Of a stretch of 64,000 nt of DNA, positions 672 to 14,464 are shown piece after piece. Origin of the DNA: Myxococcota bacterium (lineage in GTDB: Bacteria; Myxococcota; UBA727; JAHDBA01). The stretch lies in NCBI GenBank assembly GCA_020630615.1, contig JAHDBA010000007.1, forward strand, positions 1 to 64,000, read 5' to 3'. Position 1 is the first letter of the stretch. Every line of letters starts with the position of its first letter. The position numbers were made by a program, and so were the translations under genes. Under the pieces are notes generated by a model, which ran no database searches, had not been told where the DNA came from, and was given only the letters and a program-made list of their open reading frames with translations.

Positions 672-944
672 ATGACTAAAGCAGAACTCATCGAGCTCGT
701 ACAAAAGCATAATGACAACCTCACCAAGAAAGCTAGTGGTGAAATCGTTGACTCTATCTTCAGTGCAATTTCAAAAAGCATTAAAAAAGAAGAGCGTTTC
801 GCATATCCAGGTTTCGGAACATTCACAGTACGTAAGCGTAAAGCACGTACAGGTATCAACCCTCAAACTGGCGAAAGCATCAAAATCAAAGCAAGTAAAA
901 CTGTGGGTTTCAAGCCTGCAAAAGCTTTCAAAGAAAGCCTCTAA
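672..944 (+). CDS. HU-family nucleoid DNA-binding protein
   Basis: This 90-residue protein has the full HU/IHF fold length. It begins MTKAELIELV, has the PGFGTF turn in the middle and the arm motif RKARTGINPQTGE with the intercalating proline, followed by a Lys-rich C-terminus. HU dimers bend and package DNA with little sequence preference. The start at 672 follows an AAGGAG SD. A clean terminator sits 40 nt after the stop, so it is probably monocistronic. A second HU/IHF-family gene (45931-46368) has a different tail. Whether this one is closer to HU or IHF cannot be settled by eye. Confidence 0.93.
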   Translation: MTKAELIELVQKHNDNLTKKASGEIVDSIFSAISKSIKKEERFAYPGFGTFTVRKRKARTGINPQTGESIKIKASKTVGFKPAKAFKESL

Positions 945-983
945 GCTTTAATCTCCGTACCCAATACCGGTATGGAATACGTG

Positions 984-1007
984 CCAGCCTTCGGGCTGGT
1001 TTTTTTT
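984..1007 (+). terminator. Rho-independent terminator after the HU-like gene
   Basis: A 6-bp GC-rich stem CCAGCC/GGCTGG closed by a TTCG tetraloop is followed directly by eight T residues. This is a textbook intrinsic terminator in the plus direction. Confidence 0.93.
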
Positions 1008-1165: not shown

Positions 1166-2077
1166 ATGATTAACATCAACAAACATGTCTCCAATATTGT
1201 TAATGCCAACACAATTACTGATGCTCAGGTTCAGAGCGAAGGGCGAGTACAAAATTTTAGTGAAAGTGAACTCGCTGAATTTAAAGTGCTTGCACAAAAA
1301 ATCGACAGTGGTGATTTTGACGATCTCGACCTCGAAGACTTCCTAAACGCGATCGAAAAGGCCTATTCTGGCGAACACGCTGAGGCCTACACGCAAAGTG
1401 GGCTGCACTCGAAAGAACGTGAGGAGCTGAATGAAGTAATTCGACTCTTACGCGATGTGAAGTCCAAAATACAACACTACGAAGAAAAGGATGTTCTTGG
1501 CAACGGCGAAAGCTTAAGCTTTGACCATGCAAAAACTCGACTCCAAGAACTTATTCAAAGTACAAGAGCACTCAAACGTTCGCCGTCGTATGATCCGAAC
1601 GTCAACAAAGATGTCTTAATTGAGACCGATAAACCTCTTTACTTTCAACGTGCAAAGCTCAGCGTCGGTTCTGATGAAGACTTTCAGGCACAGTTTGAGA
1701 CCTTGGTCGCATCGTGGTTTGTTGAACGCTTTGATATTGACGGAGTGAAAGGCCTCAACAAAGCAGAGTCTGAGGCATTGGTTGAATCGCTACGCCTTTT
1801 ACCAAGCGACTCGGAAGTCTTTACGTCAAGCATGCAAGTCACCTATGAAGGTGATAAAACTGTTGCGCAGGTCCGAGTCGGCAATGACGGAAGTTACAGT
1901 GGTATCATCAAAAATAAAGAGAAAGACTACGCACTCGGGATCGGCCAGAACGCTGTCGGTGGTGCTCAAGTCAAGGTCACAAGTGAGACGATTGACTTTC
2001 AATACGAAGAACTCAACCAAGGCGGCTCGGATGCAGCGGATGAAGCGAACCCTCTCGATGACTTTTTTGATTTTTAA
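1166..2077 (+). CDS. Unknown protein with degenerate EF-hand-like loop, short relative of its downstream neighbour
   Basis: This 303-residue protein has no signal peptide or membrane segment and I do not recognise its family. The first 160 residues look helical and charged. Residues about 165-280 resemble residues about 58-170 of the next gene: an FDID-type loop (Asp190 to Glu201, with KGLNKAE) followed by a helix (ALVESLR) and then beta-rich sequence. In canonical EF-hand numbering only positions 1, 3 and 12 keep acidic residues, so calcium binding is doubtful. The C-terminus is acidic and ends DDFFDF. The ATG at 1166 was chosen over an in-frame TTG at 1052; neither has a good SD. The next gene starts 11 nt after the stop, so the two are probably co-transcribed. 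Confidence 0.7.
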   Translation: MININKHVSNIVNANTITDAQVQSEGRVQNFSESELAEFKVLAQKIDSGDFDDLDLEDFLNAIEKAYSGEHAEAYTQSGLHSKEREELNEVIRLLRDVKSKIQHYEEKDVLGNGESLSFDHAKTRLQELIQSTRALKRSPSYDPNVNKDVLIETDKPLYFQRAKLSVGSDEDFQAQFETLVASWFVERFDIDGVKGLNKAESEALVESLRLLPSDSEVFTSSMQVTYEGDKTVAQVRVGNDGSYSGIIKNKEKDYALGIGQNAVGGAQVKVTSETIDFQYEELNQGGSDAADEANPLDDFFDF

Positions 2078-2088
2078 ATTATGAGCTA

Positions 2089-4869
2089 ATGATGGAGCCC
2101 CTTAAAGGTGTACGCGCACACTTCATCGCGAAGAACGCTCCAGAGAGCAACAAGGACTCGACATCCGTCGCTCTAGAGCACAATCCTAACGAGGATGGAC
2201 TTCGTCTCAATGAAAACTTTCCTCTAATTTACGAAGAGATTATTGCTCGTGCGGAACTGCGCCCAACACGCGATACAGGCTCTCTTCGCATGGGTATGGG
2301 TTCTCGTATACACCCAGAATTTGCAGCAGCTTTTGATATCGATGACGATGGAGAGCTTGGAAAAACCGAGGCTAAAGTTCTTTTAGAGACCTTACGCGCA
2401 TTCAATGTCAATTCCGAGCATACCACACACTATGAATATGAATTTGAAAGTGGAACCCTTTCAATTGATATTGACGCCAACAACAATATTTTGAGCCGTC
2501 AAGGGGACATCGGAATTCGCCAGGGGAACGCTGCGGCGCGTTTGTCTGTCAACGGAGATGGCAGCACAGCAATAGGCGCACAGGTCTCGACAAAGACCGG
2601 TCAGGCAGAAGTTAAGCTTGCGACTGCACCCAACTCTTCAGCAACAGTCGCGTATTCTCTTCAACACACATCGCAGCATTCGAGCTCGACGGTGACCGGC
2701 CGTCATTCTGAAGATGAGCATGAGTTATCTGTACGTGCCGGCGTCAATACGAAGGGCGTAGAGGTGGCATCTACTGTGAGGCATCGTCAAGGCGCAAGCC
2801 ACTCACAAATTTCAGGTTCCCTTGAAGTTGATGTTGTGCAAAACGATATTCACGGCACCGCAAGTGCAAGAATGGCGACTGCTTCCGAGAAGGGTCGACA
2901 GGTCACGACATTCTATTCAGAGTCGAGTCTAAAGATTCAACGTCGTCCTACCACTACCCATACATTGAAAACGAATGCTGCAAGTGCTCACAATCGTTTG
3001 GGTTCGTACAGGGAGGTCGGTCTCAAATATAGCGCGAAGGGTCGAACAAAGGCTTTCGGTTGGACGGCATCTCTAGCCGCAAAACTTGAGAAACAAGAGG
3101 GTAAGCTCGACCTGCAGCATTTTTCAGAGCTCCTCATGGACGATCCGACATTCCAAAAAGCATTTGAAGCGGGCCTACCCGATGGTGTCTCTTTTTCACT
3201 CGATGCTTTGGGCCAAATTAAGTTTGGCGACAAGGGTCCACTCTTGCAGGTTGGAAAGGTCGAGTTCCCCTTACGAGAGGTATGGGGCGGACTTTCAATT
3301 GCATCTGGCGCCACTTCGTGGAACGCCGGCGTTGAGGTTGGCCTCACACAAGTAGTGAATATGCGCGCATCGGTCGAGAGTGCCCATCGAGGACGCGAGG
3401 GCGACTTTGATGCAAAGCTTTTCCAAGCCAATCTTCAGAAAGGAATGGTCTCGCTCGGCTTTACCTTGAACCTTGGCGGTCTCAATAAAAAGGCCAAGGA
3501 TGCTCTTCGCGACGTAATGGACATGGCGCCGGATGCACAACTTGAGATTCACGAGATCCGTATTGGTCGTGTACTCGGCGATGAATCCACCCTTGGTTTC
3601 GGCGACGCGCTGAAAGAGATTCGCCAGATTCATGGGACACCCAAGGTCTACCTGGAAACAGTGCAGGCAAAAGATATCGATGCGATGACTATCGATGAAC
3701 TTATTACCACGGCACGAATCGCCTTTTACTATGAGTTGCATGGTGTTGATCACCCACCCGAAGACTCTGCGCTTTCGAATCGGGTGCGATCTTTGATCGA
3801 AAATCGAGCAGACGAAGTTCATGATAGAGATGTGAAAAAATGGATCCAAGGTGCAAATGCAGAACTGAGTCTCCATAATATTGAATGGACATACGAGCTC
3901 TTTCAAGAGCATGTTTCAAGGCTGAGTCATGATTCAATTGAGGAACCCGAATTCTGGTCAAACCTAAAAGGGCAGGGTCGACGTAACCTTGAAATGATTG
4001 CGAGCTATGCCGCTTCACGCACCTGGGATGCTCAGGCGCTTGAGAGTGCCAAGAACCTCCATGCGAGTCTGGGCATGGATGGCGACCCGTTGTCTTCGAC
4101 CCTTCGAATGCAGAATGCGCTCGACCAAGACCCCAAGTGGCTTCAAACATCGGCAGGTGAAGACTTCATCGATACTGTTGTTCGACCTTCTCTCGAACGT
4201 GCGAATTCACGTCAAGAGGTTGATCTCGCCATACAACTCTTCTCTACGATGGAAATGAAACCCGGAGACATTGAAAGTATTGGTAAAGCACTTGGGAAAT
4301 TCATATTGAACGATGCGCACCTTTTCAAAAGTGACATCGAAGTGAACTACAGTCCAATAGCGCTCTTGATCCCTAAAAAGATGTACAACGCTCTGGCGCT
4401 TTTTCTTCACAACGAGGGTGTCTCTTGGCGTGACATCGATGCAAATCTCAACACACCACAGTCGGCACTCATCGCCGAATACGATACGCAGCGTTTTACG
4501 ACGGATGAAAGTCAATCCATGCTGATAGAGGCCAAAGAACGACTCGCGAAGCTACTTGAGAACACTCCAAAGAGTGATGCAGATGAGTTTTCGAAGGTCG
4601 ACAAAGAGATCTTCTTAACACGGCTTCTCTACGACCCGGATTTTTCAAAGCAGGCTTTTTACATCACTGACAAAAACGCTGGGTATCGCGTGAAACGGTT
4701 TGCACAAAGACTTGAAGTCTTGTTTGAAGGTTCTCACAATCCTGAAGGGCGAGAGAAGATTGAAGCAATTTTCAAGGCACACCCAATACTCTCTAACCAG
4801 GCGGCGTACGGGTATGAAGACCTCTTCAACTATGTACAAGAACTACGAAACAAGGCTCTAAAAGATTAA
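2089..4869 (+). CDS. Large unknown protein with canonical EF-hand loop and long beta-rich region
   Basis: This is a 926-residue protein of unknown family. An EF-hand loop at residues 83-94 (DIDDDGELGKTE) has acidic residues at positions 1, 3, 5 and 12 and Gly at 6, flanked by helices, so calcium binding is likely. Residues about 110-460 are Ser/Thr/Gly-rich with alternating polar and apolar residues, as in beta-barrel or beta-helix proteins. The last about 450 residues look helical. No Sec or Tat signal or lipobox is visible, so location is unknown; a beta-rich protein without a signal could leave by a non-Sec route. The N-terminal EF-hand module is shared with the upstream gene. Start is one of two adjacent ATGs (2089 or 2092) with a weak GAG SD. 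Confidence 0.8.
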   Translation: MMEPLKGVRAHFIAKNAPESNKDSTSVALEHNPNEDGLRLNENFPLIYEEIIARAELRPTRDTGSLRMGMGSRIHPEFAAAFDIDDDGELGKTEAKVLLETLRAFNVNSEHTTHYEYEFESGTLSIDIDANNNILSRQGDIGIRQGNAAARLSVNGDGSTAIGAQVSTKTGQAEVKLATAPNSSATVAYSLQHTSQHSSSTVTGRHSEDEHELSVRAGVNTKGVEVASTVRHRQGASHSQISGSLEVDVVQNDIHGTASARMATASEKGRQVTTFYSESSLKIQRRPTTTHTLKTNAASAHNRLGSYREVGLKYSAKGRTKAFGWTASLAAKLEKQEGKLDLQHFSELLMDDPTFQKAFEAGLPDGVSFSLDALGQIKFGDKGPLLQVGKVEFPLREVWGGLSIASGATSWNAGVEVGLTQVVNMRASVESAHRGREGDFDAKLFQANLQKGMVSLGFTLNLGGLNKKAKDALRDVMDMAPDAQLEIHEIRIGRVLGDESTLGFGDALKEIRQIHGTPKVYLETVQAKDIDAMTIDELITTARIAFYYELHGVDHPPEDSALSNRVRSLIENRADEVHDRDVKKWIQGANAELSLHNIEWTYELFQEHVSRLSHDSIEEPEFWSNLKGQGRRNLEMIASYAASRTWDAQALESAKNLHASLGMDGDPLSSTLRMQNALDQDPKWLQTSAGEDFIDTVVRPSLERANSRQEVDLAIQLFSTMEMKPGDIESIGKALGKFILNDAHLFKSDIEVNYSPIALLIPKKMYNALALFLHNEGVSWRDIDANLNTPQSALIAEYDTQRFTTDESQSMLIEAKERLAKLLENTPKSDADEFSKVDKEIFLTRLLYDPDFSKQAFYITDKNAGYRVKRFAQRLEVLFEGSHNPEGREKIEAIFKAHPILSNQAAYGYEDLFNYVQELRNKALKD

Positions 4870-4922: not shown

Positions 4923-5634
4923 AGCGCGTCATCCAAGGTTTCAAACCACCACCCGCAGGTTCATTCTTTTTCTTGGGCTCGGGCTTTTTACGCTTGAGAC
5001 TCGTCATTTTACGATCCCATTTTCCAGCGTCGTCTTTTCCAAGCATCTCTGCAACCTTCGTTAACGTTCGTTCATGAATCGCGGCCCGCTGGTCATCACT
5101 CAGCGTTCCTTTATAGACACTTTTCGATTTTAAAACACGCGATGGGTCTTCACCTTGTAGTTCGGTGATAAAGGCTTTTGCTTCATCCCCCCCCATATAA
5201 CCCAACGCGTAGATGGCACTGTCGAGAACCCAAAAACTTTGGTCATTGGTCACAAAGGTGTTTTGCAATCGAAAAATGACATGTGGCGTAGCAGGTGCCG
5301 CACTTCGACCAAAGGCAGCCAATGCTTTTGTGAAGTGCACGAAAGCAGCGTCAGTCGGAGCTCCGCCAGCCAAGTGCGCAAGCACGGGTATAAGATCATC
5401 CGGGAGCTTGCCCTCCCTCGCCTGCTGGCGCAACGCCAAGGCCGGTAACGCCACCTTCTCGGGAGCATCGTTGAGGAGCTCCTTGATCACGTAAAGGTTC
5501 ACCTTAAAATCAGCGTTAATGCAACGTTCGAGAAGATCTTCTCCTTGACCTTCACTTTTTCCAGCCGCTTGGGCTGAACCGGTATTGGTTTCACTGGTCG
5601 TTGGTTTCGCAGCTGCTTCAGCACTCAATGTCAT
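4921..5634 (-). CDS. HEAT/helical-repeat-like protein, unknown role
   Basis: This 237-residue protein has a low-complexity Ala/Thr/Ser-rich N-terminus, then helical pairs such as KVNLYVIKELLND, VIFRLQNTF and SAIYALGYMG that resemble HEAT-type repeats, and a Lys/Pro-rich basic tail ending in GGLKPWMTR. There is no signal peptide, so it is probably cytoplasmic, and the tail could bind nucleic acid. I recognise no enzyme motif. ATG at 5634 was chosen over an in-frame TTG at 5655; a GGGG stretch lies about 7 nt upstream. It is separated from recJ by 183 nt and is probably transcribed on its own. Confidence 0.7.
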   Translation of the reverse strand: MTLSAEAAAKPTTSETNTGSAQAAGKSEGQGEDLLERCINADFKVNLYVIKELLNDAPEKVALPALALRQQAREGKLPDDLIPVLAHLAGGAPTDAAFVHFTKALAAFGRSAAPATPHVIFRLQNTFVTNDQSFWVLDSAIYALGYMGGDEAKAFITELQGEDPSRVLKSKSVYKGTLSDDQRAAIHERTLTKVAEMLGKDDAGKWDRKMTSLKRKKPEPKKKNEPAGGGLKPWMTR

Positions 5635-13146: not shown

Positions 13147-13183
13147 CTTCAAGCACTAGCATAGGCCAGTACAAGCTTGACCT

Positions 13184-14464
13184 TCAACCCAACCATCGCA
13201 CTTGATTTTGAATAATTTCCATCGCGATGTCACGAACGCTCTTACCTTTACGCTGCGCAAGCTCACCCAACACTTTCATTTCATTTTCAGAAAGTGTCAA
13301 ACTCAGTAACGATGCATCGGCATCGTCCGACACTAAAGATGCGATAAGTTCTTCTTCGGATTCTTCTGTCCCCGGGTTCGGCATTGAAAGTTCTGCAAAG
13401 TCTGCGCTGTCCAAATTGAGCGCCTCTGTCATCTCACCTTCATGAGCACTCATCCCTTTCTTCGCGATAGGACCCGTTTGTGTCATCTCAACATCCATCT
13501 CACGCGTATCGCGCAACATCACTTTCTCCTGCTCGATTTCCGTATCGAAGAGCTGCTTCATGAAGTTTGAAAGATGAATACTTGAAGGGTTGAACTCAGA
13601 TTTTGATAAGTACTTGTCGATGTCATGCTTCATGTCGGACGCAGACTGGTACCTCTTTTCTCTGTCTTTTTCTAAGGCCTTCATCAGAATCGTGCTGATT
13701 TCTTCGGGTAAGTCTTTCTTAAAATATCCAGGCGGATAAATTTTACCTTTGATGATAGCGTTGAGAATCGCCATTTCATTTTCACCAGTGAAAAGCTTTG
13801 TACCGGTAATCCATTCGTAGAGGATTGAACCCAAAGAAAAGAGGTCGGAGCGCGAATCAAGTTGGTGACCCATCGCCTGTTCAGGACTCATATACGAGAG
13901 CTTCCCTTTGATTTCTCCTGCCTTCGTTTCAACCAGTTGCGTATTCGCCTTTGCAATCCCGAAATCTGCAAGCTTGACGGTGCCGTTAAATGCAACAATA
14001 ATATTCTCGGGCGTCACATCACGATGAACAATCCCAAGAGGGTTACCGAAAGAATCTGTTTTTTCGTGCGCATGATAGAGCCCCTCAAGTGCCATTGAAG
14101 CAATCTTCAACGCGTACACCATCGGGAACTGAATCTCCTTACGGTTGGCGTGTGGGATAATACGACTCATATCGCGACCCGAAACATACTCCATCGCGAT
14201 AAAATATGCGTCGCTTACTTTGCCCAAGTCGTGAATCTGAACAATATTGGGATGCGTCAACTGCGCCGCAAGCTTCGCCTCATTGAGAAACATACGCACA
14301 AAGTTCGGCTGGCTTGATAGGTGGGTCCGAATACGTTTGATGGAAATAAGCTTCTCAAATCCCTCGAGACCTTTTTGGCGGGCCAGAAATATTTCCGCCA
14401 TACCCCCGACCGCAATGCGATGCAGGAGAACATACTTACCAAATCGTTTCGCGCGCTTTGCCAT
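13184..14464 (-). CDS. Hanks-type Ser/Thr protein kinase, soluble
   Basis: A 426-residue protein. The kinase domain is at about residues 8-275: Gly-rich loop IAVGGMAEIF, catalytic Lys43 (ISIKRI), alpha-C Glu62, HRDVTPEN with HRD at 147-149, DFG at 167-169 and SPEQ. All catalytic residues are present and the V-T-P-E-N form is typical of Myxococcota. No transmembrane helix follows. The 150-residue C-terminal part is acidic and Met/Ser/Thr-rich, and ends in a short helical region (MKVLGELAQRKGKSVRDIAM) that could be a docking or small DNA-binding-like module. ATG at 14464. Probably transcribed with the repeat protein and hydrolase downstream. Confidence 0.93.
   Translation of the reverse strand: MAKRAKRFGKYVLLHRIAVGGMAEIFLARQKGLEGFEKLISIKRIRTHLSSQPNFVRMFLNEAKLAAQLTHPNIVQIHDLGKVSDAYFIAMEYVSGRDMSRIIPHANRKEIQFPMVYALKIASMALEGLYHAHEKTDSFGNPLGIVHRDVTPENIIVAFNGTVKLADFGIAKANTQLVETKAGEIKGKLSYMSPEQAMGHQLDSRSDLFSLGSILYEWITGTKLFTGENEMAILNAIIKGKIYPPGYFKKDLPEEISTILMKALEKDREKRYQSASDMKHDIDKYLSKSEFNPSSIHLSNFMKQLFDTEIEQEKVMLRDTREMDVEMTQTGPIAKKGMSAHEGEMTEALNLDSADFAELSMPNPGTEESEEELIASLVSDDADASLLSLTLSENEMKVLGELAQRKGKSVRDIAMEIIQNQVRWLG

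What the first reader, a model, noticed from the sequence alone, without database searches (positions are those of the whole stretch)
1166..4869. Two adjacent unknown proteins share an EF-hand module, one canonical and one degraded
The 926-residue protein has a canonical EF-hand loop (DIDDDGELGKTE, residues 83-94) followed by beta-rich sequence; its 303-residue neighbour has a matching but degenerate loop (residues 190-201) in a similar context, so they probably arose by duplication. The long beta-rich region has no export signal. Paired with an HU gene and a candidate operator upstream, this could be a two-component adhesin, secretion substrate or calcium-responsive system that I cannot match to a known family.
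Basis: partly seen in the sequence, partly recalled or inferred. Interest (0 to 1): 0.6.

Follow-up and report, generated by a model that had tools for sequence, protein, structure and literature searches.

The report
Private calcium-loop protein family, probably exported
Two neighbouring genes, plus a third copy elsewhere in the same genome, encode a protein family found so far in no other genome, built from a calcium-binding loop in front of a long beta-sheet region; they look like accessory proteins exported without a standard signal, perhaps by the type III secretion machinery that this bacterium carries, but that route is not proven.

Summary
The 926-residue protein (P0002) has a canonical EF-hand loop at residues 83-94. 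The 303-residue neighbour (P0001) has an aligned, degraded loop at 190-201, but their shared homology is modest (shuffle p about 4e-4). Its canonical loop, DADKDGVLSTQE, sits at the same alignment position.

The family matches nothing in Pfam, NCBIfam, PHROGs, PDB sequences, 195 genomes of the phylum, or the contig, phage and plasmid collections. The HU link is refuted: a related genome has mutS-recJ-HEAT-[about 60 bp]-HU-rsgA without the pair, so the genes are a lineage-specific insert, and a terminator separates HU from them. The "operator" is unsupported.

P0001 and P0002 have no signal peptide and no cysteine in 1,229 residues; P0002 has amphipathic beta strands. The genome encodes type III secretion components (SctV, SctR, SctQ above curated cut-offs, SctJ, SctT-like, SycD-like chaperones). 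I favour accessory, calcium-stabilised proteins exported by that system (confidence 0.35); no direct evidence ties them to it. Both AlphaFold models failed (pLDDT 36-38), so the fold is unknown.

The parts
1166..2077 (+). P0001, 303 aa, acidic (pI 4.5), no cysteine, no signal peptide; helical N-terminal half and a C-terminal degraded EF-hand module
1733..1768 (+). Degraded EF-hand loop of P0001, residues 190-201 (DIDGVKGLNKAE); position 5 ligand and Gly6 lost
2089..4869 (+). P0002, 926 aa, no cysteine, no signal peptide; starts 11 bases after the P0001 stop, so probably one operon
2335..2370 (+). Canonical EF-hand loop of P0002, residues 83-94 (DIDDDGELGKTE), aligned with DADKDGVLSTQE of the paralogue P0005
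2416..3048 (+). Amphipathic beta-strand region of P0002 (residues 110-320); beta-period hydrophobic moment 5 s.d. above shuffles
3175..3252 (+). Motif LPDGxxFSxxxxGxxKFGxxGPLxxV (residues 363-388), the part best conserved between P0002 and P0005
3481..4866 (+). C-terminal part of P0002 (residues 465-926), predicted helical, absent from P0005
   Evidence: (low-confidence model)
672..944 (+). HU-family gene: conserved flank of the insertion site, not part of the system
983..1000 (+). Intrinsic terminator after HU that separates it from P0001/P0002
4921..5655 (-). HEAT-repeat-like gene P0003: the other conserved flank of the insertion site (68% identical in G001)

Best explanation
P0001 and P0002, with the paralogue P0005 at G000 contig C35:40792-42735, form a fast-evolving accessory protein family, so far found only in this genome. 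In P0002 and P0005 a single EF-hand precedes a meander of amphipathic beta-strands and the LPDG/KFG motif; P0002 adds a helical tail. P0001 carries a degraded copy of the EF module. Shown: the sequence features, the P0002-P0005 paralogy, the insertion between two conserved genes, the lack of signal peptide and near-absence of cysteine, and type III secretion components in the genome. Inferred: the proteins leave the cell by the type III (or needleless T3SS*-like) export apparatus in an unfolded state. The EF-hand is empty in the calcium-poor cytoplasm and binds calcium outside, which nucleates folding of the beta region. P0001, with its dead calcium site, would be a co-exported partner or a decayed duplicate.
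For: Paralogy and shared EF position. No cysteine in 303 + 926 residues against a median of 1.1% in 102 ORFs of the genome; P0005 has one in the 625 residues from its likely ATG. No hydrophobic N-terminus or transmembrane segment; the N-terminus of P0005 is rich in S/T/N/P/Q (top 1% of 71 proteins), that of P0001 moderately so. Amphipathic beta strands. T3SS genes: SctV above the TIGR01399 cut-off and below the FlhA cut-off, SctR and SctQ above cut-off, SctT-like, SctJ/FliF family, two SycD/LcrH-like chaperones, both below that family's cut-off. Accessory status: empty site in G001 and no relatives in 195 phylum genomes. Precedent: Ca2+-induced folding of a type III-secreted protein (PMC6506597); T3SS* in predatory Myxococcota (PMC12075869, PMC11509652).
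Against: No secretion or translocation signal was demonstrated. The P0002 N-terminus is ordinary in composition. Neither locus lies in a T3SS cluster, and no chaperone gene is adjacent. Completeness of the T3SS (secretin, ATPase, SctU, needle) was not checked. Lack of cysteine can have other causes. P0001 has weak statistical support as a family member. There is no reliable structure.
Confidence: 0.35

Rival explanations
1. The proteins are surface or extracellular proteins (adhesin-like, perhaps membrane-inserting beta structures) exported by another Sec-independent route, such as a type I exporter with a C-terminal signal. Calcium stabilises them outside the cell, as in RTX proteins.
For: No cysteine, beta-rich amphipathic strands, a calcium site, no N-terminal signal. 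Non-significant fold matches of the poor P0005 model include many outer-membrane barrels and pore-forming toxins.
Against: No RTX repeats and no hit to any adhesin or secretion family. No recognisable T1SS genes next to the locus (read by eye). The fold matches are all non-significant and the model is unreliable.
Confidence: 0.25
2. The proteins are cytoplasmic, lineage-specific proteins with a structural or regulatory role; the EF-hand is a folding element or an intracellular calcium sensor.
For: No export signal of any kind was found. The second site is flanked by housekeeping genes (mrp-like and thiG-like) and the first by HU and HEAT/recJ/mutS.
Against: Near-absence of cysteine is unusual for proteins of this size in this genome: P0002 is the only Cys-free ORF above 430 aa of 102 ORFs of at least 250 aa. 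Long amphipathic beta meanders are more typical of exported proteins (general knowledge).
Confidence: 0.25
3. P0001 is not a homologue of P0002. Its loop resembles an EF-hand by chance, and it is an unrelated small acidic protein, possibly a cytoplasmic partner or chaperone of P0002 encoded in the same operon.
For: A P0002+P0005 profile does not retrieve P0001; BLASTP shows no significant match in that region. It is acidic (pI 4.5) and encoded just upstream, like some secretion chaperones.
Confidence: 0.2

Closest known systems
Type III-secreted calcium-binding proteins (NopE/VIC_001052 MIIA domain; XopAW EF-hand effectors)
   Same: Exported proteins with EF-hand-like calcium sites. For VIC_001052, Ca2+ induces secondary structure and activity (PMC6506597).
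   Different: No sequence match of P0001, P0002 or P0005 to NCBIfam XopAW or any other family; secretion not shown; no autocleavage motif identified.
Substrates of the needleless T3SS* of Myxococcus xanthus and Bradymonabacteria
   Same: The genome encodes a non-flagellar export apparatus (SctV, SctR, SctQ, SctT-like, SctJ), as reported for predatory Myxococcota (PMC12075869, PMC11509652).
   Different: I found no sequence family of T3SS* effectors to compare with. That this genome belongs to Myxococcota is inferred, not shown. SycD-like chaperones are present here, whereas the M. xanthus T3SS* lacks a translocon.
RTX / type I secreted calcium-folding proteins
   Same: Proposed principle: unfolded inside, folded by calcium outside.
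   Different: No RTX nonapeptide repeats; a single EF-hand instead.
Pfam EF-hand_5 (PF13202)
   Same: P0005 scores 13-18 bits, and the loop is canonical in P0002 and P0005.
   Different: Below the 25.9-bit family cut-off; a single hand, not a pair.

Membership tests
EF-hand (single hand, EF-hand_5-like) | 12-residue loop D-x-[DNS]-x-[DNS]-G-x-[ILV]-x-x-x-E between two helices | tested here: met
   P0002 83-94 and P0005 272-283; expected 0.015 by shuffling, 2 seen, aligned. Not met in P0001 (positions 5 and 6).
EF-hand (single hand, EF-hand_5-like) | Score above Pfam cut-off PF13202 (25.9 bits) | tested here: not met
   Best 17.6 bits in the genome, at P0005; P0002 has no EF-hand model hit.
Type III secretion substrate | Genome encodes a non-flagellar T3SS export apparatus | tested here: met
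   SctV, SctR, SctQ above NCBIfam cut-offs; SctJ by Pfam. Secretin, ATPase, SctU and needle not searched.
Type III secretion substrate | N-terminal uncleaved signal: no Sec signal, disordered and S/T/N/P-rich | tested here: inconclusive
   No Sec signal in any of the three; enrichment strong in P0005, moderate in P0001, absent in P0002.
Type III secretion substrate | Encoded with a chaperone or in the T3SS cluster | tested here: not met
   No chaperone next to either locus. SycD-like chaperones are at C35:106-108 kb, about 63 kb from P0005.
Type III secretion substrate | T3SS-dependent secretion | not testable with these tools
   Needs an sctV-deletion experiment.
XopAW calcium-binding effectors | NCBIfam NF041410 above cut-off | tested here: not met
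   No match for P0001, P0002 or P0005; only P0006 gives a weak, non-significant hit (E = 0.14).
RTX / T1SS substrates | GGxGxDxUx nonapeptide repeats | tested here: not met
   No Pfam or NCBIfam RTX hit.
Surface adhesin / outer-membrane barrel | Recognisable fold | tested here: inconclusive
   AF2 pLDDT 36-38; Foldseek finds nothing at E <= 0.001.

The most novel reading that the evidence does not exclude
A new family of type III (T3SS*-type) exported proteins of a bacterial predator or host-associated bacterium, in which one EF-hand acts as a calcium switch that lets a long amphipathic beta meander fold, and perhaps insert into a membrane, only after export. The family diversifies by duplication and loss of the calcium site.
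Probability: 0.2. Interest if true: 0.6.

Novelty: new variant of a known kind. Interest (0 to 1): 0.35.

Why it matters
Substrates of the needleless T3SS* of predatory Myxococcota are poorly known. If these proteins are exported by such a system, they would give a concrete, testable set of candidates and a calcium-folding principle to examine. If they are not, the family is a private orphan family of modest interest.

Tried and rejected
HU link: rejected, because the conserved synteny exists without the pair and a terminator lies between. Operator at 1048-1061: not supported; near-matches elsewhere include a coding site, and none lies in the 84 bases read upstream of the apparent start of P0005. 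Weak hits in other genomes from the P0002 search: L003 and L004 inspected and judged chance; L005 has a similar E-value (0.1) and an in-frame stop and was not followed. Homologue searches that found nothing: genome contigs twice, viral contigs, plasmids, phages, order and phylum. Structure prediction of full P0002 and of the P0005 core, two-sequence alignments: pLDDT 37.6 and 36.1, unusable; Foldseek against PDB gave only E > 0.4. Attempt to find an empty site for P0005 with a thiG query: thiG was not found in G001 (70% complete) and flanks in the other genomes were not followed. Other EF-hand-like hits of the genome: L010 is a probable lipoprotein or secreted protein with a hydrophobic N-terminus and not a relative; the rest were not inspected. 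Comparison of P0001, P0002, P0005 and P0006 with 179 ORFs from four contigs, which included the annexin protein, showed no further family member.

Full report
What is there. The window holds two adjacent co-directional genes, 1166-2077 (P0001, 303 aa) and 2089-4869 (P0002, 926 aa), separated by 11 bases. P0002 has the canonical EF-hand loop DIDDDGELGKTE at residues 83-94. P0001 has DIDGVKGLNKAE at residues 190-201, which keeps positions 1, 3, 8 and 12 but not 5 and 6.

Is it more than chance? The strict EF pattern is expected 0.015 times in shuffled P0002 plus P0005 and is seen twice, in the same alignment column. Searching the window's own genome (G000, 2.83 Mb, 48 contigs) with P0002 gave one weak hit (E = 0.047). 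It turned out to be a 648-aa ORF, P0005, with DADKDGVLSTQE in the same place, the same beta-rich region, and the shared motif LPDGxxFSxxxxGxxKFG. BLASTP of the two gives E = 1e-7 over about 360 columns. The Smith-Waterman score of 148 stands far above the next best ORF at 66 or 61. P0002 and P0005 are therefore paralogues.

P0001 is less certain. The match of its C-terminal half to P0002 77-166 scores 66 against 33 for shuffles, p about 4e-4, and is its best among 178 ORFs. phmmer gives 2.6e-4 for the whole protein but 0.028 for the best domain. A P0002+P0005 profile ranks P0001 first among non-members only at E = 0.48. I treat the homology as probable.

A private family. No Pfam, NCBIfam or PHROG family and no PDB sequence matches significantly (the PDB search was run for P0002 and P0005 only). 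A profile of the three (A2) finds nothing else in the 16 genomes of the order at a convincing level or in 195 genomes of the phylum at E <= 0.001. Genome contigs, viral contigs, plasmids and phages are also empty. These searches have limited reach for proteins that diverge this fast.

The site is an insert. In G001, a genome of the same family, contig C45 carries mutS, recJ, the HEAT-like gene (68% identical), about 60 bases, HU (74% identical) and rsgA, in the same arrangement but without P0001 and P0002 (intergenic sequence). HU is thus a long-standing neighbour, and in the window it ends in its own terminator at 983-1000. One empty site does not by itself prove gain rather than loss; the absence from the other genomes searched favours gain. 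The candidate operator palindrome at 1048-1059 has look-alikes elsewhere, including inside a gene, and none lies in the 84 bases read upstream of the apparent start of P0005.

Properties that bear on function. P0001 and P0002 have no cysteine (0 of 1,229 residues), while the median ORF of this genome has 1.1%. P0005 has one in the 625 residues from its likely ATG. None has a hydrophobic N-terminus or a transmembrane segment. The beta-period hydrophobic moment of P0002 110-320 is 5 s.d. above shuffles, and that of P0005 290-545 is 3.3. The P0002 C-terminal part is helical by the same measure (z = 3.1). AlphaFold with two-sequence alignments gave pLDDT 37.6 and 36.1. I draw no fold from these; the Foldseek search of the second found nothing at E <= 0.001.

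Export route. The genome has one FHIPEP-family protein, and it scores above the cut-off for SctV and below that for FlhA. SctR and SctQ are also above cut-off, in a cluster with FliO-like and SctT/FliR-like genes. There is one SctJ/FliF-family gene next to a weak FliG-like gene. Two SycD/LcrH-like chaperone genes (below that family's cut-off) flank a 246-aa cysteine-free ORF. T3SS-like export apparatus is known from predatory Myxococcota as the needleless T3SS* (PMC12075869, PMC11509652). Calcium-induced folding of a type III-secreted protein has been shown for VIC_001052 (PMC6506597). On this basis I rank type III-type export with calcium-assisted folding first, at 0.35. Other Sec-independent export and a cytoplasmic role remain open. 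Secretion itself is not shown, and neither locus lies next to T3SS genes or a chaperone gene.

What remains unknown. A Myxococcota-like affiliation is my inference from the kinase-rich gene content and T3SS*-type genes. The fold, calcium binding, export and target are all untested.

Noticed in passing
L040:12467-18256 (G000 C39:89467-95256): A 1,929-aa protein without an evident signal peptide carries an annexin domain near its N-terminus (Pfam PF00191, E = 7e-16); the rest has no Pfam match at E <= 0.01. It may be another exported calcium-binding protein of this genome.
   Followed up: partly
L036:5973-8266 (G000 C35:105973-108266): Two SycD/LcrH-like TPR chaperone genes flank a 246-aa cysteine-free ORF (P0006), a candidate type III substrate operon; P0006 has a non-significant XopAW hit (E = 0.14).
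   Followed up: partly
G000 contigs C8, C35, C39: Type III secretion genes are scattered over three contigs (SctV; SctQ-FliO-like-SctR-SctT; SctJ with a FliG-like gene), with a FliO-like gene in the non-flagellar cluster.
   Followed up: partly
genomes G005, G007, G009, G011-G015 (same order, one family): One family of the same order has genomes of only 0.3-1.8 Mb while its relatives reach 7.7 Mb, which suggests a host-associated reduced lineage.
   Followed up: no
window 5494-5507 and 13173-13186: Near-copies of the palindrome AAGGTTGACCTTAA upstream of P0001: 3 in the window with up to 2 mismatches against 0.42 expected; one lies within the HEAT-like gene.
   Followed up: no
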